A DNA stretch of 64,000 nucleotides from Calliopsis andreniformis. Taxonomy: Eukaryota > Arthropoda > Insecta > Hymenoptera > Andrenidae. Made by a program: the position numbers and the translations under genes. Positions 1 through 64,000 of this stretch are shown piece by piece. Under the pieces are notes generated by a model that was not told the origin of the DNA, did no database searches, and saw nothing but the letters and a program-made list of their open reading frames with translations. The DNA lies in assembly GCF_051401765.1 (NCBI RefSeq), contig NW_027480507.1:806001-870000 (forward strand), written 5' to 3'. Within the stretch, counting starts at the first letter, position 1. Each line of letters starts with the position of its first letter.

Positions 1-460
1 CCTCAATACTCAATCCTCAATCCTCAATCCTCAATCCTCAATCGTCAGTCTTCAATCCTCAATACTCAATCTTCAATCCTCAATACTCAATCCTCAATCC
101 TCAATCCTCAATCCTCATTCTCCAATCCTCAATACTCAATCCTCAATCTTCAATCCTCAATCCTCAATCCTCAATTCTCAATCCTCAATCCTCAGTCCTC
201 AGTCCTCAAACCTCAATCCTCAACCCTCAGCCCTCATCCTCAATCCTCAATCCTCAATCCTCAGTCCTCAAGCCTCAATCCTCAATTCTCAATCCTCAAT
301 CCTCGATCCTCGGACCTCAAACATCAATACTCAACCCTCAGTCATCGTCCTCAATCCACAACCCTCAATCCTCTATCCTCAATCTTCAATCATCAATATA
401 CAACCTTCAGTCCTCAATCCTCAATACACAATCCTCAATCCCCAATCCTTAATGTTCAAT

Positions 461-468
461 CCGCGATA
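461..468 (+). repeat. CCGCGATA marker heptads, first of about 47
   Basis: TTCAATCCGCGATACCCAAT is the one recurrent CpG-dense variant. Positions of CCGCG: 461, 943, 3947, 4366, 5058, 9670, 13651, 14161, 17919, 18966, 19455, 20906, 21513, 24880, 26983, 28030, 28512, 29963, 30570, 32686, 33168, 33650, 34703, 35255, 36308, 36790, 37865, 38354, 39332, 39814, 42286, 42719, 44675, 46352, 49187, 49620, 51910, 53587, 55123, 55389, 58160, 59836, 61365 and 61631. The copies at 45,150, 52,385 and 58,635 read CCCCGATA. Those at 42,286, 44,675, 49,187, 51,910 and 58,160 read CGCGAAACC. The spacing 482 or 489 recurs, which suggests an old unit of that size. Confidence 0.8.
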
Positions 469-664
469 CCCAATCCTCAATGTTCAATCCTCAATACACA
501 ATCCTCAATCCTCAATCCTCAATCCTCAATCCTCAATCCTCAATCCTCAGTCCCCAAACCTCAATCCTCAATCTTCAGTCCTCAATACTCAATCTTCAAT
601 CCTCAGTCTTCAATACTCAATCCTCAATCCACAATCCTCAATCGTCAATCTTCAATCCTCAATA

Positions 665-1797
665 CTCAATCTTCAATCCTCAATCCTCAATCCTCAATCC
701 TCAATCCTCATTCTTCAATCCTCAATACCCAATCCTAAATCTTCAATCCTCAATCCTCAATCCTCAGTTCTCAATTCTCAATCCTCGATCCTCAGACCTC
801 AAACATCAATACTCAACCCTCAGACCTCGTCCTCAATCCACAACCCTCAATCCTCAATCCTCAATCTTCAATCATCAATATACAACCTTCAGTCCTCAAT
901 CCTCAATAATCAATTCTCAGTCCTCAATCCTCAATGTTCAATCCGCGATACCCAATCCTCAGTGTTCAATCCTCAATGCTCAATCCTCACTCCACAATCC
1001 TCAGTCCTCAATCCTCAGTCCTCAATCCTCAGTCCCCAAACCTCAATCCTCAATGCCCAATCCTCAATCCTCAATCCTGAGTCCTCAATCCTCAATCCTC
1101 AATCCTCAAACCTCAATCCTCAACCGTCAGTCCTCGTGCTCAATCCTCAACCCTCAATCCTCAATCCTCTATCGTCAATCCTCAATACTCAATCTTCAAT
1201 CCTCAATCCTCAATCCTCAACCCTCAATCCTCAATCCTCAATCCCCAATCTTCAATCCTCAATACCCAATCCTCAATCTTCAATCCTCAACCCTCAATCC
1301 TCAATTCTCAATCCTCAATCCTCAGTCCTCAGTCCTCTAGCCTCAATCCTGAACCCTCAGCCCTCATCCTCAATCCTCAATTCTCAATCCTCATTCCTCA
1401 ATCTTCAATCCTCAATACTCAATCTTCAATCCTCAATCCTCAGTCCTCAAACCTCAATTCTGTATCCTCAATCCTGAATCCTCAATCTTCAGCCCTCAGT
1501 CCTCAACAATCCGATGTCAACCCTCAATCCTCAACAGAATATCCTCATTTCACAGTTTTCAATACTCAATACTCAATCTGCAATCTTCAAATCTCTATCC
1601 ACAAACATCAATTCTCATTATCAACCCTCAACACTCTGTCCTCAACGTTCAATCCTCAATCCTCAATTCTCAATCTTCAACACTCAATACTGAATCTTCA
1701 ATCCTCAATCCTCAGTCCTCAATCCTCAATCCTCAACCCTCAATCCTCAATCCTCAATTTTCAATCCTCAATACTCAATCTTCAATCCTCAATCCTC
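665..1797 (+). repeat. Copy 1 of 1.1 kb direct repeat (offset 4,115)
   Basis: This segment recurs at about 4,780-5,912. Anchors keep one constant offset: marker 943 pairs with 5,058, CCGATGTC 1,511 with 5,626, block A1 with A2, and AATTTTC 1,756 with 5,871. The content is degenerate heptads only. A visible difference is CTCTG (near 1,634) against CTCAG at the end of block A. Confidence 0.8.
1536..1638 (+). repeat. Type A degenerate block, first of nine
   Basis: This is a 103-bp block of diverged heptads, recognisable by AGAATATCCTCATTTCACAG, CTGCAAT and CATTATCAACC. It divides into 7-bp units with one 6-bp unit near its right end (around ATCAAC), which makes it one base shorter than types B, C and D. 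Copies lie at 1,536-1,638; 5,651-5,753; 20,286-20,388; 29,343-29,445; 43,565-43,667; 46,918-47,020; 50,800-50,902; 54,153-54,255 and 60,402-60,504. The 20,286 copy has ACAAT in place of AGAAT. All copies lie at offsets explained by the larger duplications. I see no coding or regulatory role; the block serves as a lineage marker. Confidence 0.85.
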
Positions 1798-1960
1798 AAT
1801 CCTCAAACCTCAATCGTCAACCCTCAGCCCTCATCCTCAATCCTCAATCCTCCATCTTCAATCCTCAATCCTCAATCCCCAATCCTCAATCTTCAATCCT
1901 CAGTACTCAATCTTCAGACCTCAGACCTCAACAATCAGTCGACAATCCTCAATCCTCAAT

Positions 1961-2064
1961 AGAATAACCTCAATTCACAGCTTTCACTACTCAATACTCA
2001 ATCTGCAATCTTCAAACCTCTATCCACAAACATCAATTCTCATCACTCAACTCTCAACACTCAG
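1961..2064 (+). repeat. Type B degenerate block, first of seventeen
   Basis: This 104-bp block is 14 full heptads plus 6 bases. It is marked by TTTCACTACTCAAT, CTTCAAACC and ACTCAGACCCC, and is preceded by CAGTCGACAATCC, which carries a GTCGAC palindrome not seen in the other block types; the copies at 34,200, 35,805 and 37,320 read AAGTCGAC. Copies start at 1,961; 18,428; 23,091; 27,492; 32,148; 34,200; 35,805; 37,320; 38,794; 40,951; 45,702; 47,852; 50,178; 52,937; 54,585; 59,186 and 60,827, each 104 bp. Most have ATCCACAATTC; those at 1,961, 38,794, 54,585 and 60,827 have CCTCAATTC. Those at 45,702 and 52,937 share AGTAGAAT. Confidence 0.85.
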
Positions 2065-2177
2065 ACCCTAATCCTCAATCTTCAATCCTCAATCCTCAAC
2101 ACTCAGTCCCCAATCCTCAATCTTCAATCCTCAATACTCAATCTTCAATACTCAATCCTCAATCCTCAATCCTCAAT

Positions 2178-2303
2178 CTTCATTCCTCAATCCTCAATCC
2201 TCTATCCTCAATCCTCATTCTTCATTCCTCAATCCTCAATCCTCTATCCTCAATCCTCATTCTTCATTCCTCAATCCTCAATCCTCTATCCTCAATCCTC
2301 ATT
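2178..2303 (+). repeat. 42-bp six-heptad unit in tandem, first of nine three-copy loci
   Basis: The unit is six heptads in fixed order: CTTCATT, CCTCAAT, CCTCAAT, CCTCTAT, CCTCAAT, CCTCATT. Three tandem copies occur at 2,178-2,303; 4,632-4,757; 5,951-6,076; 7,636-7,761; 41,175-41,300; 45,926-46,051; 48,076-48,201; 53,161-53,286 and 59,410-59,535. Two copies occur at 18,652-18,735; 27,716-27,799; 54,809-54,892 and 61,051-61,134. Single variants replace one heptad in places (for example CCACATT near 45,961). Confidence 0.82.
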
Positions 2304-2695
2304 CTTCAATCCTCAATACCCAATCCTCAATCTTCAATCCTCAATCCTCAATCCTCAATCCTCAATCCTCATTCTTCAATCCTCAATACCCAATCCTAAA
2401 TCTTCAATCCTCAATCCTCAATCCTCAATCCCCAATCTTCAATCCTCAATACGCAATCCTCAATCTTCAATCCTCAACCCTCAATCCTCAATCCTCAGTC
2501 CTCAATTCTCAATCCTCAGTCCTCAATCCTCAATCCTCAATCCTCAATCTTCGATCCTCAATACTCAATCTTCAATCCTCAATCCTCAATCCTCAGTACT
2601 CAATCTTCAATCCTCAAACCTCAATCCTCAATCCTGAATCCTCAATCTTCAGCACTCAGTCCTCAACAATTAGTTGTCAATCCTCAATCCTCAAT

Positions 2696-2799
2696 AGAAT
2701 ATCATCAATTCACAGCTTTCAATACTCAATACTCAATCTGCAATCTTCAAATCTCTATCGACAAACATCAATACTCATCACTCAACCCTCAACACTCAG
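2696..2799 (+). repeat. Type C degenerate block, first of nine (C and C')
   Basis: This 104-bp block begins AGAATATCATCAATTCACAG. Type C has CGACAAACATC, with copies starting at 2,696; 3,458; 41,797 and 48,698. C' has CACAGTTTTC, CAAGTCTC and CCACAAACATC, with copies starting at 6,517; 8,202; 12,057; 16,325 and 25,389. The 12,057 copy reads CATAAAGTC instead of CTTCAAGTC, a private change. All copies keep the 7-bp register. The 41,797 and 48,698 copies share ATCATTAATTC and a CGGCAAT variant. Confidence 0.85.
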
Positions 2800-3177
2800 T
2801 CCCAAATCCTCAATCTTCAATCCTCAATCCTCAATCCTCAATCCTCAATCCTCAATCTTCAATCCTCAATACTCAATCTTCAATCCTCAATCCTCAATCC
2901 TCAATCCTCAATCTTCATTCCTCAATCCTCAATCCCCAATCTTCAATCCTCAATACCCAATCCTCAATCTTCAATCCTCAACCCTCAATCCTCAATCCTC
3001 AGTCCTCAATTCTCAATCCTCAGTCCTCAATCCTCAGTCCTCAGTCCTCAAACCACAATCCTCAACCCTCAGCCCTCATCCTCAATCCTCAATCCTCAAT
3101 CTTCAATCCTCAATCCTCAATCCTCTATACTCAATCTTCAATCCTCAGTCCTCAGACCTCAAACCTCAATTCTGAAT

Positions 3178-3187
3178 CTTCTATCCA
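3178..3187 (+). repeat. CTTCTATCCA marker, first of five
   Basis: CTTCTATCCAG is a rare variant inside a longer shared phrase that runs on through AAACCCCAATCC and ATCTTTAGTCC. Copies lie at 3,178; 40,421; 44,179; 47,322 and 51,414. The last four pair by the offsets of the 6.9-7.2 kb duplication (40,421 with 47,322; 44,179 with 51,414). The first copy links the left edge of the window to 40 kb. Confidence 0.8.
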
Positions 3188-3691
3188 GAATCCTCAATCT
3201 TCAATCCTCAAACCCCAATCCTCAATCTTTAGTCCTCAATCCTCAATACTCAATCCTCAATGCTCAATCTTCAATCCTCGATCCTGAATCCTCAATCCTC
3301 AGTCCCAAATACTCAATCTTCAATCCTCAATCCTCAACCCTCAATCTTCAATCCTCAGTACTCAATCTTCAATCCTCAAACCTCAATCCTCAATCCTGAA
3401 TCCTCAATCTTCAGCACTCAGTCCTCAACAATTAGTTGTCAATCCTCAATCCTCAATAGAATATCATCAATTCACAGCTTTCAATACTCAATACTCAATC
3501 TGCAATCTTCAAATCTCTATCGACAAACATCAATACTCATCACTCAACCCTCAACACTCAGTCCCAAATCCTCAATCTTCAATCCCCAATCCTCAATCCT
3601 CAATCCTCAATACTCAATCTTCAATCCTCAGTAATCAATCTTCAATCCTCAATCCTCAATCCTCAATCCTCAATCTTCATTCCTCAATCCT

Positions 3692-4110
3692 CAATCGTCA
3701 ATCCTCAATCCTCATTCTTCAATCCTCAATACCCAATCCTCTATCTTCAATCCTCAATCCTCAATCCTCAATTCTCAAACCTCAATCCCCGATCCTCGGA
3801 CCTCAAACATCAATACTCAAACCTCAGACCTCGTCCTCAATCCACAACCCTCAATCCTCAATCCTCAATCTTCAATCATCAATATACAATCTTCAGTCCT
3901 CAATCCTCAATACTCAATCCTCAATCCTCAATCCTTAATGTTCAATCCGCGATACCCAATCCTCAATGTTCAATCCTCAATACTCAATCCTCAATCCTCA
4001 ATCCTCAATCCTCAATCCTCAGTGCCCAAACCTCAATCCTCAATCTTCAATCCTCAATACTCAATCTTCAATCCTTAATCTTCAATACTCAATCCTCAAT
4101 CCACAATCCT
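3692..4110 (+). repeat. 419-bp tandem duplication, copy 1
   Basis: The segment starts at CAATCGTCAATCC and repeats immediately at 4,111. Markers 3,947 and 4,366 and the following ATGTTC at 3,966 and 4,385 keep the 419-bp offset. 419 is 60 heptads minus one base, matching one 6-bp CCTCGT unit inside. Confidence 0.85.
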
Positions 4111-4529
4111 CAATCGTCAATCCTCAATCCTCATTCTTCAATCCTCAATACCCAATCCTCTATCTTCAATCCTCAATCCTCAATCCTCAATTCTCAATCC
4201 TCAATCCCCGATCCTCGGACCTCAAACATCAATACTCAAACCTCAGACCTCGTCCTCAATCCACAACCCTCAATCCTCAATCCTCAATCTTCAATCATCA
4301 ATATACAATCTTCAGTCCTCAATCCTCAATACTCAATCCTCAATCCTCAATCCTTAATGTTCAATCCGCGATACCCAATCCTCAATGTTCAATCCTCAAT
4401 ACTCAATCCTCAATCCTCAATCCTCAATCCTCAATCCTCAGTGCCCAAACCTCAATCCTCAATCTTCAATCCTCAATACTCAATCTTCAATCCTTAATCT
4501 TCAATACTCAATCCTCAATCCACAATCCT
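4111..4529 (+). repeat. 419-bp tandem duplication, copy 2
   Basis: This is the direct neighbour and near-identical partner of 3,692-4,110. It ends where CAATCGTCAAGC begins at 4,530. The abutting copies with no intervening DNA fit a single unequal exchange. Confidence 0.85.
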
Positions 4530-4779
4530 CAATCGTCAAGCTTCAATCCTCAATACTCAATCTTCAATACTCTTTACTCAATCTTCAATCCTCAACCCTC
4601 AATACTCAATCCTCAATCCTCAATCCTCAATCTTCATTCCTCAATCCTCAATCCTCTATCCTCAATCCTCATTCTTCATTCCTCAATCCTCAATCCTCTA
4701 TCCTCAATCCTCATTCTTCATTCCTCAACCCTCAATCCTCTATCCTCAATCCTCATTCTTCAATCCTCAATACCCAATC

Positions 4780-5912
4780 CTCAATCTTCAATCCTCAATC
4801 CTCAATCCTCAATCCTCAATCCTCATTCTTCAATCCTCAATACCCAATCCTAAATCTTCAATCCTCAATCCTCAATCCTCAGTTCTCAATTCTCAATCCT
4901 AGATCCTCAGACCTCAAACATCAACACTCAACCCTCAGACCTCGTCCTCAATCCACAACCCTCAATCCTCAATCCTCAATCTTCAATCATCAATATACAA
5001 CCTTCAGTCCTCAATCCTCAATACTCAATTCTCAATCCTCAATCCTCAATGTTCAATCCGCGATACCCAATCCTCAGTGTTCAATCCTCAATGCTCAATC
5101 CTCACTCCTCAATCCTCAGTCCTCAATCCTCAGTCCTCAATCCTCAGTCCCCAAACCACAATCCTCAATGCTCAATCCTCAATCCTCAATCCTGAGTCCT
5201 CAATCCTCAATCCTCAATCCTCAAACCTCAATCCTCAACCGTCAGTCCTCGTGCTCAATCCTCAACCCTCAATCCTCAATCCTCTATCGTCAATCCTCAA
5301 TACTCAATCTTCAATCCTCAATCCTCAATCCTCAGCCCTCAATCCTCAATCCTCAATCCCCAATCTTCAATCCTCAATACCCAATCCTCAATCTTCAATC
5401 CTCAACCCTCAATCCTCAATTCTCAATCCTCAATCCTCAGTCCTCAGTCCTCTAACCTCAATCCTGAGCCCTCAGCCCTCATCCTCAATCCTCAATTCTC
5501 AATCCTCATTCCTCAATCTTCAATCCTCAATACTCAATCTTCAATCCTCAATCCTCAGTCCTCAAACCTCAATTCTGTATCCTCAATCCTGAATCCTCAA
5601 TCTTCAGCCCTCAGTCCTCAACAATCCGATGTCAACCCTCAATCCTCAACAGAATATCCTCATTTCACAGTTTTCAATACTCAATACTCAATCTGCAATC
5701 TTCAAATCTCTATCCACAAACATCAATTCTCATTATCAACCCTCAACACTCAGTCCTCAACGTTCAATCCTCAATCCTCAATTCTCAATCTTCAACACTC
5801 AATACTGAATCTTCAATCCTCAATCCTCAATCCTCAATCCTCATTCCTCAACCCTCAATCCTCAATCCTCAATTTTCAATCCTCAATACTCAATCTTCAA
5901 TCCTCAATCCTC
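4780..5912 (+). repeat. Copy 2 of 1.1 kb direct repeat (offset 4,115)
   Basis: This is the partner of about 665-1,797. It carries marker 5,058 and block A2. Its right part, from about 5,810, is also the left edge of the 1,685 bp-offset duplication, so two duplications overlap here. Confidence 0.8.
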
Positions 5913-7290
5913 AACCCTCAATACTCAATCCTCAATCCTCAATCCTCAATCTTCATTCCCCAATCCTCAATCCTCTATCCTCAATCCTCATTCTTCATTC
6001 CTCAATCCTCAATCCTCTATCCTCAATCCTCATTCTTCATTCCTCAATACTCAATCCTCTATCCTCAATCCTCATTCTTCAATCCTCAATACCCAATCCT
6101 CAATCCTCAATCCCCAATCCTCAATCCTCAATCCTCAATATTCAATCCTCGATACGCAGTCTTCAATCCTCAATCTTCAATCCTCAATCCTCAATCCTCA
6201 TTCTTCAATCCTCAATACCCAATCCTCATACTTCAATTCTCAATACCTAATCCTCAATCTTCAATCCTCAATCCTCAATCCTCAACTCTCAATCCTCGGT
6301 CCTCAGTCCTCAGTCCTCAAACCTCAATCCCCAACCCTCAGCCCTCATCCTCAATCCTCAATCCTCCATCTTCAATCCTCAATCCTCAATCCTCAAGCCT
6401 CAGTCCTCAACCTTCAATCCTCAGTCCTCAAACCTCAATCCTGAATCCTCAATCCTGAATCCTCAATCTTCAGACATCAGACCTCAACTATCAGACGTCA
6501 ATCCTCAATCCTCAATAGAATATCATCAATTCACAGTTTTCAATACTCAATACTCAATCTGCAATCTTCAAGTCTCTATCCACAAACATCAATTGTCATC
6601 ACTCAACCCTCAACACTCAGTCCCCAATCCCAAATCTTCAGTCCTCAATCCTCAATCCGCAATCCTCAATCCTCAATCTTCAATCCTCAATCTTTAATCC
6701 TCAATCCTCAATCCCCAATCATCAACCTTCAATCCTCAATACTCAACCTTCAATCCTCAATCTTCAATCCTCAATACTCAATCTTCAAACCTCAATCCTC
6801 AATCCTCAATCCTCAATCCTCATTCTTCAATCCTCAATACCCAATCCTCAATCTTCAATCCTGAATCCTCAATCCTCAATCCTCATTCTTCAATCCTCAG
6901 TACCCAATCCTCAATCTTCAATCCTCAATCCTCAATCCTCAATTCTCAGTCCTCAATCCTCACTCCTCAGTCCTCGAACCTCAATCCTCAATCCTCAGCC
7001 CTCATCCTCAATCCTCAATCCTCAACCCTCAATCCTCAACCTTCAATCCCCAATACTCAGTCTTCAATCCTCAATCCTCAGTCCTCAAACCTCAATTCTG
7101 AATCCTCAATCCTGAATCCTCAATCTTCGGCCCTCAGTCCTCATCAATCAGTTGTCAATCCTCAATCCTCAATAGAATATCCTCAGTTCAGAGCTTTCAA
7201 GACGCAATACTCAATCTGCAATCTTCAAATCTCTATCGAGAAACATCAATACTCATCACTCAACCCTCAACACTCAGTCGCCAATCCTCA
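5810..7290 (+). repeat. 1.5 kb direct repeat copy 1 (offset 1,685)
   Basis: The anchors AATTTTC (5,871/7,556), block C' (6,517/8,202), block D (7,174/8,859) and the 42-bp tandem (5,951/7,636) all keep the 1,685-bp offset. The left edge is blurred by surrounding similarity. The right edge is where ACTCAGTCG in this copy meets ACTCAGTCC in the other, just after block D. Confidence 0.82.
7174..7277 (+). repeat. Type D degenerate block, first of thirteen (D, D', D'')
   Basis: This 104-bp block is marked by CCTCAGTTCAGAGC and ACGCAAT. Type D has TTTCAAGACG and CGAGAAACATC, with copies starting at 7,174; 8,859; 12,840; 17,108; 24,069 and 26,172. D' has AGAATAGCC and CGACAAAC, with copies starting at 9,083; 13,064; 17,332; 24,293 and 26,396. 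D'' has AGAATATCC with CGACAAAC, with copies starting at 22,072 and 31,129. D and D' usually occur as a pair about 224 bp apart, a sign that a D-D' dimer is carried along by the larger duplications. Confidence 0.85.
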
Positions 7291-7494
7291 ATCTTCAATC
7301 CTCAATGTTCAATCCTCAGTACTCAATCCTCAATCCTCAATCCTCAATCCTCAATCCTCAATCCTCAGTGCCCAAACCTCAATCCTCAATCTTCAATCCT
7401 CAATACTCAATCTTCAATCCTTAATCTTCAATACTCAATCCTCAATCCACAATCCTCAATCGTCAAACTTCAATCCTCAATACTCAATCTTCAA

Positions 7495-8975
7495 TCCTCA
7501 ATCCTCAATCCTCAATCCTCAATCCTCATTCTTCAACCCTCAATCCTCAATCCTCAATTTTCAATCCTCAATACTCAATCTTCAATCCTCAATCCTCAAC
7601 CCTCAATACTCAATCCTCAATCCTCAATCCTCAATCTTCATTCCCCAATCCTCAATCCTCTATCCTCAATCCTCATTCTTCATTCCTCAATCCTCAATCC
7701 TCTATCCTCAATCCTCATTCTTCATTCCTCAATACTCAATCCTCTATCCTCAATCCTCATTCTTCAATCCTCAATACCCAATCCTCAATCCTCAATCCCC
7801 AATCCTCAATCCTCAATCCTCAATATTCAATCCTCGATACGCAGTCTTCAATCCTCAATCTTCAATCCTCAATCCTCAATCCTCATTCTTCAATCCTCAA
7901 TACCCAATCCTCATACTTCAATTCTCAATACCTAATCCTCAATCTTCAATCCTCAATCCTCAATCCTCAACTCTCAATCCTCGGTCCTCAGTCCTCAGTC
8001 CTCAAACCTCAATCCCCAACCCTCAGCCCTCATCCTCAATCCTCAATCCTCCATCTTCAATCCTCAATCCTCAATCCTCAAGCCTCAGTCCTCAACCTTC
8101 AATCCTCAGTCCTCAAACCTCAATCCTGAATCCTCAATCCTGAATCCTCAATCTTCAGACATCAGACCTCAACTATCAGACGTCAATCCTCAATCCTCAA
8201 TAGAATATCATCAATTCACAGTTTTCAATACTCAATACTCAATCTGCAATCTTCAAGTCTCTATCCACAAACATCAATTGTCATCACTCAACCCTCAACA
8301 CTCAGTCCCCAATCCCAAATCTTCAGTCCTCAATCCTCAATCCGCAATCCTCAATCCTCAATCTTCAATCCTCAATCTTTAATCCTCAATCCTCAATCCC
8401 CAATCATCAACCTTCAATCCTCAATACTCAACCTTCAATCCTCAATCTTCAATCCTCAATACTCAATCTTCAAACCTCAATCCTCAATCCTCAATCCTCA
8501 ATCCTCATTCTTCAATCCTCAATACCCAATCCTCAATCTTCAATCCTGAATCCTCAATCCTCAATCCTCATTCTTCAATCCTCAGTACCCAATCCTCAAT
8601 CTTCAATCCTCAATCCTCAATCCTCAATTCTCAGTCCTCAATCCTCACTCCTCAGTCCTCGAACCTCAATCCTCAATCCTCAGCCCTCATCCTCAATCCT
8701 CAATCCTCAACCCTCAATCCTCAACCTTCAATCCCCAATACTCAGTCTTCAATCCTCAATCCTCAGTCCTCAAACCTCAATTCTGAATCCTCAATCCTGA
8801 ATCCTCAATCTTCGGCCCTCAGTCCTCATCAATCAGTTGTCAATCCTCAATCCTCAATAGAATATCCTCAGTTCAGAGCTTTCAAGACGCAATACTCAAT
8901 CTGCAATCTTCAAATCTCTATCGAGAAACATCAATACTCATCACTCAACCCTCAACACTCAGTCCCCAATCCTCA
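7495..8975 (+). repeat. 1.5 kb direct repeat copy 2 (offset 1,685)
   Basis: This is the partner of 5,810-7,290, with only a few visible differences. Between the two copies, about 7,272-7,500 holds a segment that itself recurs at about 9,181-9,410 (offset 1,909; CAGTG 7,366 pairs with 9,275). The order is therefore X, Y, X, D', Y. Confidence 0.82.
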
Positions 8976-11900: not shown

Positions 11901-12549
11901 ATCCTCCATCTTCAATCCTCAATCCTCAATCCTCAAGCCTCAGTCCTGAACCTTCAATCCTCAGTCCTCAAACCTCAGTCCTGAATCCTCAATCCTGAAT
12001 CCTCAATCTTCAGACATCAGATCTCAACTATCAGACGTCAATCCTCAATCCTCAATAGAATATCATCAATTCACAGTTTTCAATACTCAATACTCAATCT
12101 GCAATCATAAAGTCTCTATCCACAAACATCAATTCTCATCACTCAACCCTCAACACTCAGTTCCCAATCCCCAATCTTCAGTCCTCAATCCTCAATCCGC
12201 AATCCTCAATCCTCAATCTTCAATCCTCAATCTTTAATCCTCAATCCTCAATCCTCAATCCCCAATCATCAACCTTCAATCCTCAATACTCAACCTTCAA
12301 TCCTCAATCTTCAATCCTCAATACTCAATCTTCAAACCTCAATCCTCAATCCTCAATCCTCAATCCTCATTCTTCAATCCTCAACACCCAATCCTCAATC
12401 TTCAATCCTGAATCCTCAATCCTCATTTCTCAATCCTCAATCCTCAGTCCTCAGTCCTCTAACCTCAACCCTCATCCCTCAATCCTCAATGTTCAACCCT
12501 CAATACCCAATCCTCAATCCTCAATCCTCAATCCTCAATCCTCAATCCT
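8569..12549 (+). repeat. About 4 kb higher-order unit I
   Basis: This is the first of three consecutive related units. Its pairing to unit II shows offsets 3,981 (8,569 to about 9,930), then 4,491, then 4,268. The steps are explained by a 510-bp tandem duplication in unit II and a 223-bp extra subunit in unit I. It contains D2 (8,859), D' (9,083), the subunit cluster marked by TCTAACC (10,035-10,950) and C' (12,057). There is no gene. Confidence 0.78.
10035..10950 (+). repeat. Four-copy TCTAACC subunit cluster
   Basis: The phrase beginning TCTAACCTCAATCC recurs at 10,035, 10,251, 10,474 and 10,760, with spacings of 216, 223 and 286. Each equals a multiple of seven minus one, and each subunit has one CCCTCATCC slip. 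The related cluster in unit II has three copies, at 14,526, 14,742 and 15,028 (spacings 216 and 286), so the 223-bp subunit was gained here or lost there. Confidence 0.82.
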
Positions 12550-53200: not shown

Positions 53201-54470
53201 TTCTTCATTCCTCAATCCTCAATCCTCTATCCTCAATCCTCATTCTTCATTCCTCAATCCTCAATCCTCTATCCTCAATCCTCATTCTTCAATCCTCAAT
53301 ACCCAATCCTCAATCTTCAATCCTCAATCCTCAATCCTCAATCCTCAATCCTCATTCTTCAATCCTCAATACCCAATCCTAAATCTTCAATCCTCAATCC
53401 TCAATCCTCAATTCTCAATCCTCAATCCTCGATCCTCGGACCTCAAACATCAATACTCAACCCTCAGTCATCGTCCTCAATCCACAACCCTCAATCCTCT
53501 ATCCTCAATCTTCAATCATCAATATACAACCTTCAGTCCTCAATCCTCAATACACAATCCTCAATCCTCAATCCTTAATGTTCAATCCGCGATACCCAAT
53601 CCTCAATGTTCAATCCTCAATACACAATCCTCAATCCTCAATCCTCAGTCCCCAAACCTCAATCCTCAATCTTCAATCCTAAATACTCAATCTTCAATCC
53701 TCAGTCTTCAATACTCAATCCTCAATCCACAATCCTCAATCGTCAATCTTCAACCCTCAATCCTCAACCCTCAATCCTCAATCCTCTATCGTGAATCCTC
53801 AATACTCAATCTTCAACCCTCAATCCTCAATTCTCAACCCTCAATCCTCAATCCTCAATCCCCAAGCTTCAATCCTCAATACCCAATCCTCAATCTTCAA
53901 CCCTCAACCCTCAATCCTCAATTCTCAATCCTCAATCCTCAGTCCTCAGTCCTCTAACCTCAATCCTGAACCCTCAGCCCTCATCCTCAATCCTCAATTC
54001 TCAATCCTCATTCCTCAATCTTCAATCCTCAATACTCAATCTTCAATCCTCAATCCTCAGTCCTCAAACCTCAATTCTGTATCCTCAATTCTGAATCCTC
54101 AATCTTCAGCCCTCAGTCCTCAACAATCCGATGTCAACCCTCAATCCTCAACAGAATATCCTCATTTCACAGTTTTCAATACTCAATACTCAATCTGCAA
54201 TCTTCAAATCTCTATCCACAAACATCAATTCTCATTATCAACCCTCAACACTCAGTCCTCAACGTTCAATCCTCAATCCTCAATTCTCAATCTTCAACAC
54301 TCAAAACTGAATCTTCAATCCTCAATCCTCAATCCTCAATCCTCAATCCTCAATACTCAATCCTCAATCCTCAATCCTCAATTTTCAATCCTCAATACTC
54401 AATCTTCAATCCTCAATCCTCAATCCTCAAACCTCAATCCTCAACCCTCAGCCCTCATCCTCAATCCTCA
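47200..54470 (+). repeat. About 7.2 kb tandem duplication, copy 2
   Basis: This is the partner of 40,300-47,235, directly adjacent and in the same orientation. It carries an extra 334 bp at about 49,982-50,315 that includes block B13. The right edge is where CAATCCTCCATCTTC here replaces CAATCCTCAATCTTC of copy 1. Its last 2.9 kb is also the left part of the 6.2 kb duplication. Confidence 0.88.
49982..50315 (+). other. 334-bp segment present in copy 2, absent from copy 1
   Basis: At 43,080 copy 1 goes from CTCAATCCTCAA straight to CACTCAGTCCCC. Copy 2 carries 334 extra bases between the same points, including two CCCTCATCC slip units and block B13 (50,178-50,281). 334 is 48 heptads minus two, matching the two slips. 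The ends share ATCCTCAAC, so a deletion in copy 1 by exchange between short matches is the simplest reading, since B blocks normally occupy this place in related segments. Confidence 0.82.
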
Positions 54471-55560
54471 ATCCTCCATCTTCAATCCTCAATCCTCAAT
54501 CCCCAATCCTCAATCTTCAATCCTCAGTACTCAATCTTCAGACCTCAGACCTCAACAATCAGTCGACAATCCTCAATCCTCAATAGAATATCCTCAATTC
54601 ACAGCTTTCACTACTCAATACTCAATCTGCAATCTTCAAAGCTCTATCCACAAACATCAATTCTCATCACTCAACTCTCAACACTCAGACCCCAATCCTC
54701 AATCTTCAATCCTCAATCCTCAACACTCAGTCCCCAATCCTCAATCTTCAATCCTCAAAACTCAATCTGCAATCCTCAATCCTCAATCCTCAAGCCTCAA
54801 TCCTCAATCTTCATTCCTCAATCCTCAATCCTCTATCCGCAATACTCATTCTTCATTCCTCAATCCTCAATCCTCTATCCTCAATCCTCATTCTTCAATC
54901 CTCAATACCCAATCCTCAATCTTCAATCCTCAAACCTCAATCCTCAATTCTCAATCCTCAATCCTCGATCCTCGGACCTCCAACATCAATACTCAACCCT
55001 CAGTCATCGTCCTCAATCCACAACCCTCAATCCTCTATCCTCAATCTTCAATCATCAATATACAACCTTCAGTCCTCAATCCTCAATACACAATCCTCAA
55101 TCCTCAATCCTTAATGTTCAATCCGCGATACCCAATCCTCAATGTTCAATCCTCAATACACAATCCTCAATCCTCAATCCTCAGTCCCCAAACCTCAATC
55201 CTCAATCTTCAATCCTCAATACTCAATCTTCAAGCCTCAGTCTTCAATACTCAATCCTCAATCCACAATCCTCAATCGTCAATCGTCAACGCTCAATCCT
55301 CAATCCTCAATCTTCAATCATCAATATACAACCTTCAGTCCTCAATCCTCAATACTCAATTCTCAATCCTCAATCCCCAATGCTCAATCCGCGATACCCA
55401 ATCCTCAATGTTCAATCCTCAATCCTCAATCCTCACTCCTCAATCCTCAGTCCTCAATCCTCACTCCTCAATCCTCAGTCCCCAAACCTCAATCCTCAAT
55501 GCTCAATCCTCAATCCTCAATCCTGAGTCCTCAATCCTCAATCCTCAATCCTCAAACCTC

Positions 55561-55734
55561 AATACTCAACCGTCAGTCCTCGTGCTCAATCCTCAACCCT
55601 CAATCCTCAATCCTCTATCGTCAATCCTCAATACTCAATCTTCAATAATCAATCCTCAATTCTCAATCCTCAATACTCAATCCTCAATCGTCAATCTTGA
55701 ATCCCCAATCCTCAATCTTCAATACTCAATCCTC
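55561..55734 (+). repeat. 174-bp tandem duplication, copy 1
   Basis: The unit starts AATACTCAACCGTCAG and contains CCTCGTGCTCAATCC and CAATCTTGAATCC. It repeats directly at 55,735. 174 is 25 heptads minus one, matching the single CTCAAT six-base unit after CCTCGTG. The 6.2 kb partner has a single copy near 61,803. Confidence 0.87.
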
Positions 55735-55908
55735 AATACTCAACCGTCAGTCCTCGTGCTCAATCCTCAACCCTCAATCCTCAATCCTCTATCGTCAATC
55801 CTCAATACTCAATCTTCAATAATCAATCCTCAATTCTCAATCCTCAATACTCAATCCTCAATCGTCAATCTTGAATCCCCAATCCTCAATCTTCAATCCT
55901 CAATCCTC
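55735..55908 (+). repeat. 174-bp tandem duplication, copy 2
   Basis: This is the adjacent partner of 55,561-55,734. It accounts exactly for the offset step from 6,242 to 6,068 between the two 6.2 kb copies. Confidence 0.87.
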
Positions 55909-57849
55909 AATCCTCAATCCTCAATCCTCAATCTTCAATCCTCAATACTCAATCTTCAATGCTCAATCCTCAATCCTCAATCCTCAATCCGCAATCCTCG
56001 ATCCTCAATATTCAATCCTCGATACTCAGTCTTCAATCCTCAATCCTCAATCCTCAATCCTCAATCCTCATTCTTCAAGCCTCAATACCCAATCCTCATA
56101 CTTCAATCCTCAATACCTAATCCTCAATCTTCAATCCTCAATCCTCAATCCTCAACTCTCAATCCTCGATCCTCAGTCCTCAGTCCTCAAACCTGAATCC
56201 TCAACCCTTAGCCATCATCCTCATGCCTCAATCCTCCATCTTCAATCCTCAATCCTCAATCCTCAAGCCTCAACCCTCAATCCTCAATCCTCAGTCCTCA
56301 AACCTCAATCCTGAATCCTCAATCCTGAATCCTCAATCTTCAGACATCAGACCTCAACGATCAGACGTCAATCCTCAATCCCCAATCCTCAATCTTATAT
56401 CCTCAATACTCAATCTTCAATCCTCAATCCTCAATTGTCAATCCTCAATCCTCAATCCGCAATCCTCAATCCTCTATCCTCAATCCTCAATCGTCAGTCT
56501 TCAATCCTCAATCCTCAATCATCCATATACAATCTTCAGTCCTCAATCCTCAATACTCAATCCTCAATCCTCAATCCTCAATCCTCAATCCACAATCCTC
56601 AATCCTCAATACTCAATCTTCAATCCTCAATCCTCAATCCTCAACACTCAATCCTCATTCTTTAATCCTCAATACCAAATCCTCAATCTTCAATCCTCAA
56701 TCCTCAATCCTCAATTCTCAGTCCTCAATCCTCGATCCTCAGACCTCAAACATCAATACTCAACCCTCAGTCCTCGTCCTCAATCCACAACCCTCAATCC
56801 TCAATCCTCAACCTTCAATCATCAATATACAATCTTCAGTCCTCAATACTCAATACTCAATCCTGAATCCTCAGTCCTCAATGTTCAATCCTCAATCCTC
56901 AATCCTCAATCCTCAATCGTCAATCTTCAATCCTCAATACTCAATTTTCAATCCTCAATCCTCAACCCTCAATCCTCAATCCTCATTCCTCAATCCTCAA
57001 TACCCAATCCTCAATCTACAATCCTCAATCCTCAATCCTCAATCCTCAATCCTCAATTCTTAATCTTCAATCCTCAATCCTCAGACCTCAAACATCAATA
57101 CACAACCCTCAGTCCTCGTCCTCAATTCACAACCCTCAATCCTCGATCCTCTATCTTCAATACTCAATACTCAATATTCAATCCTCAATCCTCGATCCTC
57201 AATCCCCAATCTTCAATCCTCAATCCTCAATCCTCAATCCTCAATCCTCATTCTTCAATCCTCAATACCCAATCCTCAATCTTCAATCCTCAATCCTCAA
57301 TCCTCAATTCTCAATCCTCAATCCTCAGTCCTCAGTCCTCAAACCTCAATCCTCAAACCTCAGCCCTCATCCTCAATCCTCAATCCTCAATCCTCAATTT
57401 TCAATCCTCAATACTCAATCTTCAATCCTCAATCCTCAATCCTCAATCCTCAATCCTCAGTCGTTAGTCTTCAATCCTGAATACTCAATCTTGAATCCTC
57501 AATCCTCAGTCCTCAATCCTCAATCCTCAAACCTCAATCCTCCATCTTCAATCCTCAAAACTCAATCTGCAGTATTCAATCCTCAATCCTCAATCCTCAA
57601 TCCTCACACTTCAATCCTCAATACGCAATCCTCAATCTTCAATCCTCAATCATCAATCCTCAATTCTCAATCCTCAATCCTCAATCCTCAGACCTCAAAC
57701 ATCAATATTCAACCCTCAGTCCTCGTCCTCAATCCACAACCCTCAATCCTCAACCCTCAATCTTCAATCATCAATTTTCAATCTTTAATCCTCAATCCTC
57801 AATCCTCAATATTCAATCCTCAATCCTCAATCCTCAATCTTTAATCCAC

Positions 57850-60800
57850 AATCTTCAATCCTCAATCCTCAATCCTCAATCCTCAATCTTCATTCCTCAA
57901 TCCTCAATCGTCAATCCTCAATCCTCATTCTTCAATCCTCAATACCCAATCCTCTATCTTCAATCCTCAATCCTCAATCCTCAATTCTCAATCCTCAATC
58001 CCCGATCCTCGGACCTCAAACGTCAATACTCAACCCTCAGACCTCGTCCTCAATCCACAAGCCTCAATCCTCAATCCTCAATCTTCAATCATCAATATAC
58101 AATCTTCAGTCCTCAATCCTCAATACTCAATCCTCAATCCTCAATCCTTAATGTTCAATCCGCGAAACCCAATCCTCAATGTTCAATCCTCAATACTCAA
58201 TCCTCAATCCTCAATCCTCAATCCTCAATCCTCAATCCTCAGTGCCCAAACCTCAATCCTCAATCTTCAATCCTCAATACTCAATCTTCAATCCTTAATC
58301 TTCAATACTCAATCCTCAATCCACAATCCTCAATCGTCAAACTTCAATCCTCAATACTCAATCTTCAATCCTCAATCCTCAATCCTCAATCCTCAATCCT
58401 CATTCTTCAATCCTCAATACCCAATCCTAAATCTTCAATCCTCAATCCTCAATCCTCAATTCTCAATTCTCAATCCTCGATCCTCAGACCTCAAACATCA
58501 ATACTCAGCCCTTAGACCTCGTCCTCAATACACAACCCTCAATCCTCAATCCTCAATCTTCAATCATCAATATACAATCTTCAGTCCTTAATCCTCAATA
58601 CTCAAACCTCAATCCTCAATCATAAATGTTCAATCCCCGATACCCAATCCTCAATGTTCAATCCTCAATCCTCAATCCTCAATCCTCAATCCTCAATCCT
58701 CAATCCTCAGTCCTCAATCCTCAGTTCCCAAACCTCAATCCTCAATCTTCAATACTCAATACTCAATCTTCAATCCTCAATCCTCAATACTCAATCCTCA
58801 ATCCTCAATCCTCAATCGTCAGACTTCAATGCTCAATACTCAATCTTCAATCCTCAATACTCAATCCTCAATCCTCAATCCTCAATCCTCATTCTCCAAA
58901 CCTCAGTACTCAATCCTCAATCTTCAATCCTCAATCCTCAATCCTCAATTCTCAATCCTCAATCCTCAGTCCTCAGTCCTCAAACCTCAATCCTCAACCC
59001 TCAGCCCTCATCCTCAATCCTCAATCCTCAATCCTCAGTCCTCAAACTTCAATCCTCAACCCTCAGCCCTCATCCTCAATCCTCATTCCTCAATCCTCAA
59101 TCCCCAATCCTCAATCTTCAATCCTCAGTACTCAATCTTCAGACCTCAGACCTCAACAATCAGTCGACAATCCTCAATCCTCAATAGAATATCCACAATT
59201 CACAGCTTTCACTACTCAATACTCAATCTACAATCTTCAAACCCCCATCCACAAACATCAGTTCTCATCACTCAACTCTCAACACTCAGACCCCAATCCT
59301 CAATCTTGAATCCTCAATCCTCAACACTCAGTCCCCAATCCTCAATCTTCAATCCTCAATACTCAATCTTCAATCCTAAATCCTCAATCCTCAATCCTCA
59401 ATCCTCAATCTTCATTCCTCAATCCTCAATCCTCTATCCTCAATCCACATTCTTCATTCCTCAATCCTCAATCCTCTATCCTCAATCCTCATTCTTCATT
59501 CCTCAATCCTCAATCCTCTATCCTCAATCCTCATTCTTCAATCCTCAATACCCAATCCTCAATCTTCAATCCTCAATCCTCAATCCTCAATCCTCAATCC
59601 TCATTCTTCAATCCTCAATACCCAATCCTAAATCTTCAATCCTCAATCCTCAATCCTCAATTCTCAATCCTCAATCCTCGATCCTCGGACCTCAAACATC
59701 AATACTCAACCCTCAGTCATCGTCCTCAATCCACAACCCTCAATCCTCTATCCTCAATCTTCAATCATCAATATACAACCTTCAGTCCTCAATCCTCAAT
59801 ACACAATCCTCAATCCTCAATCCTTAATGTTCAATCCGCGATACCCAATCCTCAATGTTCAATCCTCAATACACAATCCTCAATCCTCAATCCTCAGTCC
59901 CCAAACCTCAATCCTGAATCTTCAATCCTAAATACTCAATCTTCAATCCTCAGTCTTCAATACTCAATCCTCAATCCACAATCCTCAATCGTCAATCTTC
60001 AACCCTCAATCCTCAACCCTCAATCCTCAATCCTCTATCGTGAATCCTCAATACTCAATCTTCAACCCTCAATCCTCAATTCTCAACCCTCAATCCTCAA
60101 TCCTCAATCCCCAAGCTTCAATCCTCAATACCCAATCCTCAATCTTCAATCCTCAACCCTCAATCCTCAATTCTCAATCCTCAATCCTCTGTCCTCAGTC
60201 CTCTAACCTCAATCCTGAACCCTCAGCCCTCATCCTCAATCCTCAATTCTCAATCCTCATTCCTCAATCTTCAATCCTCAATACTCAATCTTCAATCCTC
60301 AATCCTCAGTCCTCAAACCTCAATTCTGTATCCTCAATTCTGAATCCTCAATCTTCAGCCCTCAGTCCTCAACAATCCGATGTCAACCCTCAATCCTCAA
60401 CAGAATATCCTCATTTCACAGTTTTCAATACTCAATACTCAATCTGCAATCTTCAAATCTCTATCCACAAACATCAATTCTCATTATCAACCCTCAACAC
60501 TCAGTCCTCAACGTTCAATCCTCAATCCTCAATTCTCAACCTTCAACACTCAATACTGAATCTTCAATCCTCAATCCTCAATCCTCAATCCTCAATCCTC
60601 AATCCTCAATCCTCAATCCTCAATTTTCAATCCTCAATACTCAATCTTCAATCCTCAATCCTCAATCCTCAAACCTCAATCCTCAACCCTCAGCCCTCAT
60701 CCTCAATCCTCAATCCTCCATCTTCAATCCTCAATCCTCAATCCCCAATCCTCAATCTTCAATCCTCAGTACTCAATCTTCAGACCTCAGACCTCAACAA

Positions 60801-63800
60801 TCAGTCGACAATCCTCAATCCTCAATAGAATATCCTCAATTCACAGCTTTCACTACTCAATACTCAATCTGCAATCTTCAAAGCTCTATCCACAAACATC
60901 AATTCTCATCACTCAACTCTCAACACTCAGACCCCAATCCTCAATCTTCAATCCTCAATCCTCAACACTCAGTCCCCAATCCTCAATCTTCAATCCTCAA
61001 AACTCAATCTGCAATCCTCAATCCTCAATCCTCAAGCCTCAATCCTCAATCTTCATTCCTCAATCCTCAATCCTCTATCCGCAATACTCATTCTTCATTC
61101 CTCAATCCTCAATCCTCTATCCTCAATCCTCATTCTTCAATCCTCAATACCCAATCCTCAATCTTCAATCCTCAAACCTCAATCCTCAATTCTCAATCCT
61201 CAATCCTCGATCCTCGGACCTCAAACATCAATACTCAACCCTCAGTCATCGTCCTCAATCCACAACCCTCAATCCTCTATCCTCAATCTTCAATCATCAA
61301 TATACAACCTTCAGTCCTCAATCCTCAATACACAATCCTCAATCCTCAATCCTTAATGTTCAATCCGCGATACCCAATCCTCAATGTTCAATCCTCAATA
61401 CACAATCCTCAATCCTCAATCCTCAGTCCCCAAACCTCAATCCTCAATCTTCAATCCTCAATACTCAATCTTCAATCCTCAGTCTTCAATACTCAATCCT
61501 CAATCCACAATCCTCAATCGTCAATCGTCAACGCTCAATCCTCAATCCTCAATCTTCAATCATCAATATACAACCTTCAGTCCTCAATCCTCAATACTCA
61601 ATTCTCAATCCTCAATCCCCAATGCTCAATCCGCGATACCCAATCCTCAATGTTCAATCCTCAATCCTCAATCCTCACTCCTCAATCCTCAGTCCTCAAT
61701 CCTCACTCCTCAATCCTCAGTCCCCAAACCTCAATCCTCAATGCTCAATCCTCAATCCTCAATCCTGAGTCCTCATTCCTCAATCCTCAATCCTCAAACC
61801 TCAATACTCAACCGTCAGTCCTCGTGCTCAATCCTCAACCCTCAATCCTCAATCCTCTATCGTCAATCCTCAATACTCAATCTTCAATAATCAATCCTCA
61901 ATTCTCAATCCTCAATACTCAATCCTCAATCGTCAATCTTGAATCCCCAATCCTCAATCTTCAATCCTCAATCCTCAATCCTCAATCCTCAATCCTCAAT
62001 CTTCAATCCTCAATACTCAATCTTCAATGCTCAATCCTCAATCCTCAATCCTCAATCCGCAATCCTCGATCCTCAATATTCAATCCTCGATACTCAGTCT
62101 TCAATCCTCAATCCTCAATCCTCAATCCTCAATCCTCATTCTTCAATCCTCAATACCCAATCCTCATACTTCAATCCTCAATACCTAATCCTCAATCTTC
62201 AATCCTCAATCCTCAATCCTCAACTCTCAATCCTCGATCCTCAGTCCTCAGTCCTCAAACCTGAATCCTCAACCCTTAGCCATCATCCTCATGCCTCAAT
62301 CCTCCATCTTCAATCCTCAATCCTCAATCCTCAAGCCTCAACCCTCAATCCTCAATCCTCAGTCCTCAAACCTCAATCCTGAATCCTCAATCCTGAATCC
62401 TCAATCTTCAGACATCAGACCTCAACGATCAGACGTCAATCCTCAATCCCCAATCCTCAATCTTATATCCTCAATACTCAATCTTCAATCCTCAATCCTC
62501 AATTGTCAATCCTCAATCCTCAATCCTCAATCCTCAATCCTCTATCCTCAATCCTCAATCGTCAGTCTTCAATCCTCAATCCTCAATCATCCATATACAA
62601 TCTTCAGTCCTCAATCCTCAATACTCAATCCTCAATCCTCAATCCTCAATCCTCAATCCACAATCCTCAATCCTCAATACTCAATCTTCAATCCTCAATC
62701 CTCAATCCTCAACACTCAATCCTCATTCTTTAATCCTCAATACCAAATCCTCAATCTTCAATCCTCAATCCTCAATCCTCAATTCTCAGTCCTCAATCCT
62801 CGATCCTCAGACCTCAAACATCAATACTCAACCCTCAGTCCTCGTCCTCAATCCACAACCCTCAATCCTCAATCCTCAACCTTCAATCATCAATATACAA
62901 TCTTCAGTCCTCAATACTCAATACTCAATCCTGAATCCTCAGTCCTCAATGTTCAATCCTCAATCCTCAATCCTCAATCCTCAATCGTCAATCTTCAATC
63001 CTCAATACTCAATTTTCAATCCTCAATCCGCAACCCTCAATCCTCAATCCTCATTCCTCAATCCTCAATACCCAATCCTCAATCTACAATCCTCAATCCT
63101 CAATCCTCAATCCTCAATCCTCAATTCTTAATCTTCAATCCTCAATCCTCAGACCTCAAACATCAATACACAACCCTCAGTCCTCGTCCTCAATTCACAA
63201 CCCTCAATCCTCGATCCTCTATCTTCAATACTCAATACTCAATATTCAATCCTCAATCCTCGATCCTCAATCCCCAATCTTCAATCCTCAATCCTCAATC
63301 CTCAATCCTCAATCCTCATTCTTCAATCCTCAATACCCAATCCTCAATCTTCAATCCACAATCCTCAATCCTCAATTCTCAATCCTCAATCCTCAGTCCT
63401 CAGTCCTCAAACCTCAATCCTCAAACCTCAGCCCTCATCCTCAATCCTCAATCCTCAATCCTCAATTTTCAATCCTCAATACTCAATCTTCAATCCTCAA
63501 TCCTCAATCCTCAATCCTCAATCCTCAGTCGTTAGTCTTCAATCCTGAATACTCAATCTTGAATCCTCAATCCTCAGTCCTCAATCCTCAATCCTCAAAC
63601 CTCAATCCTCCATCTTCAATCCTCAAAACTCAATCTGCAGTATTCAATCCTCAATCCTCAATCCTCAATCCTCACACTTCAATCCTCATTACGCAATCCT
63701 CAATCTTCAATCCTCAATCATCAATCCTCAATTCTCAATCCTCAATCATCAATCCTCAGACCTCAAACATCAATATTCAACCCTCAGTCCTCGTCCTCAA

Positions 63801-63918
63801 TCCACAACCCTCAATCCTCAACCCTCAATCTTCAATCATCAATTTTCAATCTTTAATCCTCAATCCTCAATCCTCAATATTCAATCCTCAATCCTCAATC
63901 CTCAATCTTTAATCCACA
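57850..63918 (+). repeat. About 6.1 kb tandem duplication, copy 2
   Basis: This is the partner of 51,600-57,849. The left edge is where CCACAATCTTCAATCC leads into the copied phrase. The right edge is at TTAATCCACAATCC (63,909 on), after which sequence diverges. It carries markers 58,160, 58,635 (CCCC form), 59,836, 61,365 and 61,631, and blocks B16, A9 and B17. It lacks a one-base insertion and one heptad that the copies at 45.5 and 52.8 kb share. Confidence 0.88.
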
Positions 63919-64000
63919 ATCCTCAATCCTCAATCCTCGATCCTCAATTCTCAATACCCAATCCTCAATCTTCAATCCTCAATCCTCAATAATCAACTCT
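63919..64000 (+). repeat. Array tail at window edge
   Basis: Ordinary heptads continue to the last base. No landmark is present, and nothing suggests that the array ends here. Confidence 0.8.

What the first reader, a model, noticed from the sequence alone, without database searches (positions are those of the whole stretch)
1..64000. Gene-free heptanucleotide array of at least 64 kb, all in one orientation
Every stretch I read is CCTCAAT or a variant of it, with no inverted segment, no transposon and no unique DNA. Long satellites commonly carry inserted elements; their absence suggests active turnover by repeated duplication. A pure heptamer array of this length would be exceptional in a prokaryote and notable in a eukaryote.
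Basis: partly seen in the sequence, partly recalled or inferred. Interest (0 to 1): 0.75.

Follow-up and report, generated by a model that had tools for sequence, protein, structure and literature searches.

The report
Giant seven-base satellite in a bee
The window is a slice of a seven-letter DNA repeat that seems to fill about two fifths of a one-gigabase insect (probably bee) genome, and its near-identical blocks of up to seven thousand letters suggest that it grows by copying stretches to nearby places.

Summary
All 64 kb is a one-orientation tandem array of CCTCAAT (TRF 1-63990, 9163 copies); no gene, inserted element or inverted segment was seen. It is neither prokaryotic nor 'pure'. The window lies in a 2.16-Mb contig of a 1.019-Gb genome; 17 of 17 samples of that contig are the same array in the same direction. 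The genome has 4.68 million exact (CCTCAAT)x3 places. Three thin estimates put the satellite at 385-413 Mb, about 38-41% of the assembly; C28 (8.3 Mb) is array in 11 of 11 samples. Telomeres (TTAGGTCTGGG)n and mitochondrial COX1 point to an aculeate hymenopteran, a bee near Andrena (inference). Bases match the unit at 87%; a diverged ~70-bp marker recurs 48 times, and near-identical blocks of 0.66-7 kb, 1.6-17 kb apart, cover 87% of the window. In the samples compared, such blocks were shared only with the nearest ~40 kb. So recent growth looks local: multi-kilobase duplication, whole-monomer gain or loss, and rare inversions. It works like the 7-bp satellites of Drosophila virilis (~40% of that genome) but differs by at least 3 of 7 bases. 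A new, unusually large and well-assembled member of a known kind.

The parts
1..64000 (+). CCTCAAT satellite array, uninterrupted; part of a contig that is array in every sample taken (C98, 2,157,616 bp; window = 806001-870000)
1536..60896 (+). 48 copies of a diverged ~70-bp marker (inside a ~210-bp conserved segment) at 1536, 1961, 2696, 3458, 5651 ... 60402, 60827; spacing 224-4601 bp, 6 of 47 spacings multiples of 7
   Evidence: exact 33-nt core: 2,422 forward + 2,775 reverse places genome-wide
16307..32377 (+). largest near-identical duplication: ~16307-23313 copied at ~25371-32377 (7,006-column core, 8 mismatches, one 7-bp gap, shift 9064)
23482..27500 (+). 1,915-bp core at 23482 copied at 25585 (shift 2103, 0 mismatches); the same block also at 16521 (shift 6961, 2 mismatches)
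10424..18197 (+). 3,505-bp core at 10424 copied at 14692 (shift 4268, 10 mismatches)
43069..54477 (+). 4,173-bp core at 43069 copied at 50304 (shift 7235, 5 mismatches)
51599..61974 (+). 4,125-column core at 51599 copied at 57849 (shift 6250, 14 mismatches, gaps of 1 and 7)
40299..49984 (+). 2,784-bp core at 40299 copied at 47200 (shift 6901, 2 mismatches)
55731..63922 (+). 2,123-bp core at 55731 copied at 61799 (shift 6068, 6 mismatches)
33388..36614 (+). directly tandem duplication, 1,621-bp core, shift 1605 (2 mismatches)
5848..8965 (+). 1,432-bp core at 5848 copied at 7533 (shift 1685, 0 mismatches)

Best explanation
This is the dominant satellite DNA found in a large-genome aculeate hymenopteran, probably a bee: a 7-bp unit (CCTCAAT/ATTGAGG) carrying kilobase-scale higher-order structure, probably the bulk of long heterochromatic chromosome arms. 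It has no coding function. Shown: array, extent as sampled, abundance, higher-order structure, local near-identity, orientation switches. Inferred: it grows and turns over by local duplication of multi-kilobase blocks, in direct orientation, most simply by unequal sister-chromatid exchange (or a replication-based equivalent) followed by further rearrangement; single 7-bp units are gained or lost by slippage or short exchange; rare inversions split the field into large orientation domains. Also inferred: it persists because heterochromatin tolerates it, with short old copies left in chromosome-like contigs.
For: Array and extent. Abundance: 4,682,935 exact places (reversed control 0) give 385 Mb by the density in the C98 samples and 413 Mb by that in 66 other array samples; contig interpolation gives 397 Mb for C13-C489 (it counted one all-N sample, C470, as array). 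Of 60 contigs sampled once each (chosen by number, not at random) 34 are array, 17 per strand. Local duplication: 87% of the window lies in near-identical cores (27 cores of 657-7006 columns, shifts 1557-17313); over the window and the 15 ten-kb C98 samples there are 61 cores, 86,736 columns, 237 mismatches, and 16 of 20 gaps are exactly 7 bp. Locality: blocks >=97% over >=150 bp shared with the window cover 89% and 34% of the two adjoining 10-kb samples, 4% of one 30 kb away, and 0 of 12 C98 samples 96-1130 kb away, nor any of 8 stretches on 6 other contigs (needs an exact 100-bp word). Evenly spaced markers elsewhere, e.g. C10 1796433/1798756/1801079 (2323 twice) and C11 1220373/1222140/1223907 (1767 twice), look like tandem kilobase units. 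Inversion: C10 switches strand near 3,365,100 with no inserted DNA, at a 9-bp inverted repeat.
Against: No reads, Hi-C or cytology were available, so chromosomal position and read support are not shown. Only 2 of 61 cores are as long as their shift, so most copies do not abut and simple clean tandem duplication is not what is seen; other array DNA lies between them. The one array end that I followed (C10 ~4,442,860) runs into 100 N (a scaffold gap or a withheld stretch) beside another simple repeat, so no sequence-resolved junction of a large array with other DNA was seen. Unit positions C4 and A5 are unusually conserved (4.4% and 4.6% divergent against 20-23% at C1/C2), which a purely neutral uniform model does not explain.
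Confidence: 0.75

Rival explanations
1. Assembly artefact: the long array is invented or greatly expanded by the assembler from shorter real arrays.
For: No read data could be checked. In the bee assembly of PMC11589580 the k-mer genome-size estimate (672 Mb) was well below the assembled 1.02 Gb, so over-assembly of satellites is a live worry for such genomes. C10 has 100 N at the array edge.
Against: Copies differ by substitutions (237) and mostly 7-bp gaps (16 of 20) rather than scattered indels; contigs of 2-8 Mb are array in every sample, C28 11 of 11, C29 6 of 6, C98 17 of 17; 4.68 million places in near-equal orientation.
Confidence: 0.08
2. Long-range copying (rolling-circle reinsertion of excised circles, or gene conversion among distant arrays) makes the near-identical blocks.
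For: The same unit and marker occur on many contigs and both strands, so the family did spread at some time. Most copies in the window do not abut, as reinsertion would allow.
Against: Near-identical blocks were found only in the nearest samples, none in 12 C98 samples 96-1130 kb away or in 8 stretches of 6 other contigs. Only sparse samples were compared.
Confidence: 0.12
3. The array is kept by selection as a binding platform for a sequence-specific satellite-binding protein that reads the TCA core (unit positions 3-5).
For: C4 and A5 diverge 4.4% and 4.6%, other positions 9-23%. The unit positions of 224 recent substitutions differ from those of old ones (chi-square p=3.6e-5), and C4+A5 are 39 of 224 recent against 10.3% of old divergence, as if changes there are lost over time.
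Against: Recent substitutions are not uniform either (p=0.0016), so mutation bias or templated exchange may explain part; one mutation can be counted in more than one pair, so the p-values are too small; drift in which variants got amplified gives the same pattern.
Confidence: 0.15
4. A translated repeat: CCTCAAT is open in all three forward frames (PQSSILN repeats), so it could code for a giant repetitive protein.
For: Forward stop-to-stop ORFs reach 837 aa. There are 377 forward stops, against 404 (sd 3.9) when observed monomers are shuffled and 1285 (sd 33) in a position-free mutation model, so stops are fewer than in both nulls.
Against: The three frames have nearly the same number of stops (131, 121, 125) and the longest ORF is shorter than the mean of shuffled monomers (837 against 1035). 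The two longest ORFs match no Pfam family. The large deficit follows from the conserved C4, the only unit position where a single change makes a forward stop (checked by hand); the small one may reflect duplicated, non-independent monomers.
Confidence: 0.01
5. A telomere-type or prokaryotic short-repeat array.
For: Short CCTCAAT runs occur in many bacterial genomes.
Against: Telomeric ends seen here are (TTAGGTCTGGG)n at C4 end, C5 start, C7 end and C10 end.
Confidence: 0.01

Closest known systems
Drosophila virilis 7-bp satellites 1-3 (ACAAACT, ATAAACT, ACAAATT), ~40% of a ~400-Mb genome (PMC6922343, passages read)
   Same: Unit length of 7 bp, one-base variants, about 40% of the genome, long arrays, abundance hard to measure by sequencing.
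   Different: Different unit: at least 3 of 7 bases differ over all rotations and both strands. One degenerate family with a marker segment and kilobase-scale repeats; about 400 Mb instead of about 160 Mb (40% of 400); assembled in contigs of several Mb.
Satellite-rich bee genomes: Xylocopa violacea (1.02 Gb, 74% unclassified repeats; PMC11589580, abstract, passages and part 1 of 2 of the Results); Frieseomelitta varia (PMC11764717, abstract)
   Same: Bee with a large, repeat-rich genome or much heterochromatin; in X. violacea, chromosome-scale units plus many unplaced scaffolds and a proposal of pseudo-acrocentric heterochromatic arms.
   Different: X. violacea: reported units are a 109-mer/217-mer and a 95-mer, telomere given as TTAGG (a string also contained in TTAGGTCTGGG, so a weak difference), 1300 scaffolds with a maximum of 71 Mb; here 7-bp, 118-bp, 166-bp and 374-bp units and 489 contigs, the longest seen 41 Mb. 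F. varia: main satellite named FvarSat01-306, all satellites 11.2% of the fraction analysed.
[quoted passage not shown]
   Same: A few satellite families inflate an insect genome and build heterochromatin.
   Different: 160 families and no single heptamer named in the abstract; a bug, not a bee.

Membership tests
Satellite DNA (heterochromatic tandem repeat) | Head-to-tail tandem repeat in long arrays (>100 kb) | tested here: met
   array in every sample of C98 (17 of 17), C28 (11 of 11) and C29 (6 of 6)
Satellite DNA (heterochromatic tandem repeat) | Non-coding | tested here: met
   frames equivalent, no frame-specific stop avoidance, though total stops are slightly below the monomer shuffle, 377 against 404; the two longest ORFs match no Pfam family
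Satellite DNA (heterochromatic tandem repeat) | Located in constitutive heterochromatin | not testable with these tools
   no cytology or chromatin data; the samples of array contigs are wholly array
Simple 7-bp satellites of the Drosophila virilis kind | 7-bp unit making up tens of percent of the genome | tested here: met
   385-413 Mb of 1019 Mb
Simple 7-bp satellites of the Drosophila virilis kind | Unit related to ACAAACT, ATAAACT or ACAAATT by one or two substitutions | tested here: not met
   smallest distances 3, 4 and 4 of 7 over all rotations and both strands; works alike, not the same family
Telomeric repeat | Unit found at chromosome ends as the terminal repeat | tested here: not met
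   telomeric ends seen are (TTAGGTCTGGG)n: C4 end, C5 start, C7 end, C10 end; only some contig ends were read
Prokaryotic short tandem repeats | Prokaryotic genome, tracts of tens to hundreds of bp | tested here: not met
   genome 1.02 Gb; longest tract in the 126 viral and prokaryotic loci fetched is 421 bp
Assembly artefact | No read support or abnormal depth | not testable with these tools
   no reads held; indirect evidence

The most novel reading that the evidence does not exclude
A single heptamer satellite of ~400 Mb that evolves almost wholly by local multi-kilobase duplication, without genome-wide homogenisation, while its TCA core is held by selection as the binding site of a dedicated satellite-binding protein, so that the array is a structural arm of the chromosome rather than inert filler.
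Probability: 0.12. Interest if true: 0.7.

Novelty: new member of a known kind. Interest (0 to 1): 0.45.

Why it matters
How simple satellites grow to a large part of a genome is hard to study because sequencing under-represents them; the D. virilis paper describes that problem (12% recovered against ~40% expected). Here a heptamer field sits in contigs of 2-8 Mb with enough variant monomers to trace duplications, so duplication size, locality, slippage and inversion can be measured directly. It also adds a probable bee to the insects in which satellites dominate genome size.

Tried and rejected
This assembly being the published Xylocopa violacea one: rejected because scaffold counts, longest scaffold and reported units differ; the telomere difference is weak. 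Coding function: rejected. Telomere repeat: rejected.

Own errors corrected. (1) Self-BLAST identities and coverage, and the substitution and gap counts (recent pairs), were contaminated by alignments running past the true duplication ends; one search showed mismatches piled at the ends in most pairs, so the figures used are those of the trimmed cores. (2) labelled the C470 sample as array; it is 300 N and is excluded from the class counts, though not from the 397-Mb interpolation. (3) The first extrapolation (491 Mb) used the window's own lower hit density and was replaced by 385-413 Mb.

Literature (open-access library only): searches for CCTCAAT, ATTGAGG, doubled units and AATCCTC listed no paper on a satellite of this unit; of these only PMC2212658 was opened (passages; the letters are in a probe tag), and I saw 20 titles of 169. 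Xylocopa with satellite DNA and heterochromatin: 0 papers. PMC8977481 held none of four terms. PMC12287282 was seen only in a listing. BLAST of window 22000-23400 gave no phage record and one Paraburkholderia plasmid record (7 places; best 160 bp at 79%; low-complexity filter on). A 42-nt marker pattern has no exact match in viral contigs.
Full report
WHAT IS IN THE WINDOW. Tandem Repeats Finder reports one array over 1-63990, period 7, CCTCAAT, 9163 copies, 77% matches. Aligned to an endless CCTCAAT, 55,716 of 64,000 bases match, with 8,197 mismatches, 87 inserted and 238 missing single bases. Lag-7 identity is 0.70-0.84 in all 64 one-kb bins, against 0.324 in one first-order Markov control. 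The strand is strongly asymmetric (38% C, 3.2% G; counts). There are no shared inverted 12-mers or 14-mers. The 156 stop-to-stop ORFs of 150 aa or more are on the + strand, as expected, because the unit is open in the three forward frames and carries TGA in reverse (longest reverse frame 29 codons). The two longest ORFs match no Pfam family.

NOT PURE. 9,149 monomers fall into 216 types; the exact consensus is 3,582 of them. A diverged ~70-bp marker occurs 48 times, in a ~210-bp segment whose columns average 92-93% agreement, at spacings of 224-4601 bp, of which 6 of 47 are multiples of 7. With alignments trimmed to near-identical cores, 87% of the window is inside duplicated cores: 27 cores of 657-7006 columns with shifts of 1557-17313 bp. 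The largest has 8 mismatches and one 7-bp gap. Over the window and the 15 ten-kb C98 samples there are 61 cores, 86,736 aligned columns and 237 mismatches; of 20 gaps 16 are 7 bp and 4 are 1 bp (overlapping pairs can count one event more than once). Only 2 of the 61 cores are as long as their shift, so most copies are near each other but do not abut.

HOW FAR IT GOES. The window is C98:806001-870000 of a genome with 1,019,246,659 bases in 489 contigs. C98 is array in 17 of 17 samples from first to last base, all +. C28 (8.30 Mb) is array in 11 of 11 samples, all -; C29 (8.00 Mb) in 6 of 6, all +; C53 changes strand (1 of 4 +, 3 of 4 -). Of 60 contigs sampled once each, chosen by number, 34 are array (17 per strand), 15 a 166-bp satellite, 3 a 374-bp satellite, 7 other and 1 all N (periods). 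Exact (CCTCAAT)x3 places number 2,319,996 forward and 2,362,939 reverse; the reversed control has none. With the density in the C98 samples (12.2 per kb) this is 385 Mb; with that in 66 other array samples (11.3 per kb; 20,480 bases) it is 413 Mb. Giving every contig C13-C489 the class of its nearest sampled neighbour yields 397 Mb, with interpolated lengths summing to 1020.05 Mb for the whole assembly against the true 1019.25. These samples are thin and some come from the same contig; about 38-41% of the assembly is the working figure.

WHERE IT ENDS AND TURNS. C10 is array in 35 of 35 short samples between base 1 and 4.442 Mb, in one sequence up to ~4,442,860, and has a telomere at its far end. 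Strand switches near 3,365,100 with no inserted DNA, at a perfect 9-bp inverted repeat around a 5-nt loop (read); the two sides are not a long palindrome (the 12 longest of 755 matches are 82-89% identical). The array end runs into 100 N, a scaffold gap or a withheld stretch, followed by an AT-rich simple repeat, then ORFs with a double-jelly-roll-like domain and a reverse transcriptase domain. So a sequence-resolved junction of a large array with other DNA was not seen. Short arrays with non-repeat flanks exist on C4 and C5 (about 0.4 kb each) and, with the left flank only seen, on C7 (at least ~2.3 kb, with marker-like segments).

HOST. Contig ends carry (TTAGGTCTGGG)n, which PMC10632776 (passages) gives for many aculeates. 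A COX1 reading frame on C89, perhaps a nuclear copy, is 86% identical to a hymenopteran entry and 83-85% to Andrena entries, above Rediviva and Colletes at 82% (best 120 of 7,999 listed). I infer a bee of or near Andrenidae. Xylocopa violacea has the same assembly size but different reported units and scaffold counts.

HOW IT WORKS. Near-identical blocks are shared only with neighbours: >=97% blocks cover 89% and 34% of the two adjoining 10-kb samples, 4% of one 30 kb away, and none of 12 C98 samples 96-1130 kb away, nor any of 8 stretches from 6 other contigs (an exact 100-bp word was needed to start a match). Copies are in direct orientation, one pair in the window is directly tandem (shift 1605), and elsewhere markers recur at exact kilobase steps (C10 2323 bp twice, C11 1767 bp twice, first places only). 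This fits local duplication, most simply unequal sister-chromatid exchange or a replication-based equivalent followed by further rearrangement, with single-unit gain or loss and rare inversion. The biochemical route is inferred. The family reached many contigs earlier: the exact 33-nt marker core has 5,197 places.

WHAT IS NOT EXPLAINED. Unit positions C4 and A5 diverge 4.4% and 4.6%, other positions 9-23% (all-array divergence only). Among 224 recent substitutions C4 and A5 have 39; the distribution differs from old divergence (p=3.6e-5) and from uniform (p=0.0016). Mutation bias, exchange with older variants, chance amplification or selection for a protein-binding core could each contribute. 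Stop avoidance is an unlikely reason: frames are nearly equal and changes at A5 make no stop; but total stops (377) are a little below the monomer-shuffle null (404, sd 3.9).

COMPARISON. Drosophila virilis carries three 7-bp satellites at ~40% of ~400 Mb by density gradients, though sequencing recovers ~12% (PMC6922343, passages). The present satellite is the same kind of thing by size of unit and share of genome, not by sequence (at least 3 of 7 bases differ). Differences are its degeneracy, its kilobase-scale structure, its larger absolute size and its assembly into megabase contigs.

Noticed in passing
G000 contigs C276, C304, C364, C374, C381: Partial COX1 (profile about 158-433) repeats at ~11,610-bp steps in long tandem series, as in tandem nuclear copies of mitochondrial DNA; 96 of 308 candidate places were scored. 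Longer COX1 copies, most with one or two TAA, lie on C11, C17, C35, C86, C89, C111, C119, C153 and others, several as oppositely oriented pairs about 39-74 kb apart. Mitochondrial concatemer contigs were not excluded.
   Followed up: partly
G000 C13-C22, C25-C27, C11:7-18 Mb (L162, L173-L181, L184-L186, L245-L248): A 166-bp satellite is in the single samples of the largest unplaced contigs (up to 41 Mb) and four samples of C11, in both orientations: a second genome-scale satellite.
   Followed up: partly
G000 contig ends C1, C2, C3, C4, C5, C9 (L150-L153, L156, L161): A 118-bp satellite lies at one end of these contigs; on C4 and C5 the other end is telomere, so it may mark a centromere or arm boundary.
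   Followed up: no
G000 C150, C200, C400 and others (L165, L166, L168): A 374-bp satellite; neighbouring copies 90%, 99.5% and 100% identical in the three samples, with internal 44-bp repeats in L166 and L168.
   Followed up: no
G000:C10:4442861-4452000 (L310, L311): Beside the array: 100 N, ~4 kb of an AT-rich ATAATC/ATAACC-type repeat, a fragment with a double-jelly-roll-like domain (PF21738) and a reverse transcriptase (PF00078) in GC-rich DNA.
   Followed up: partly
   Followed up: no
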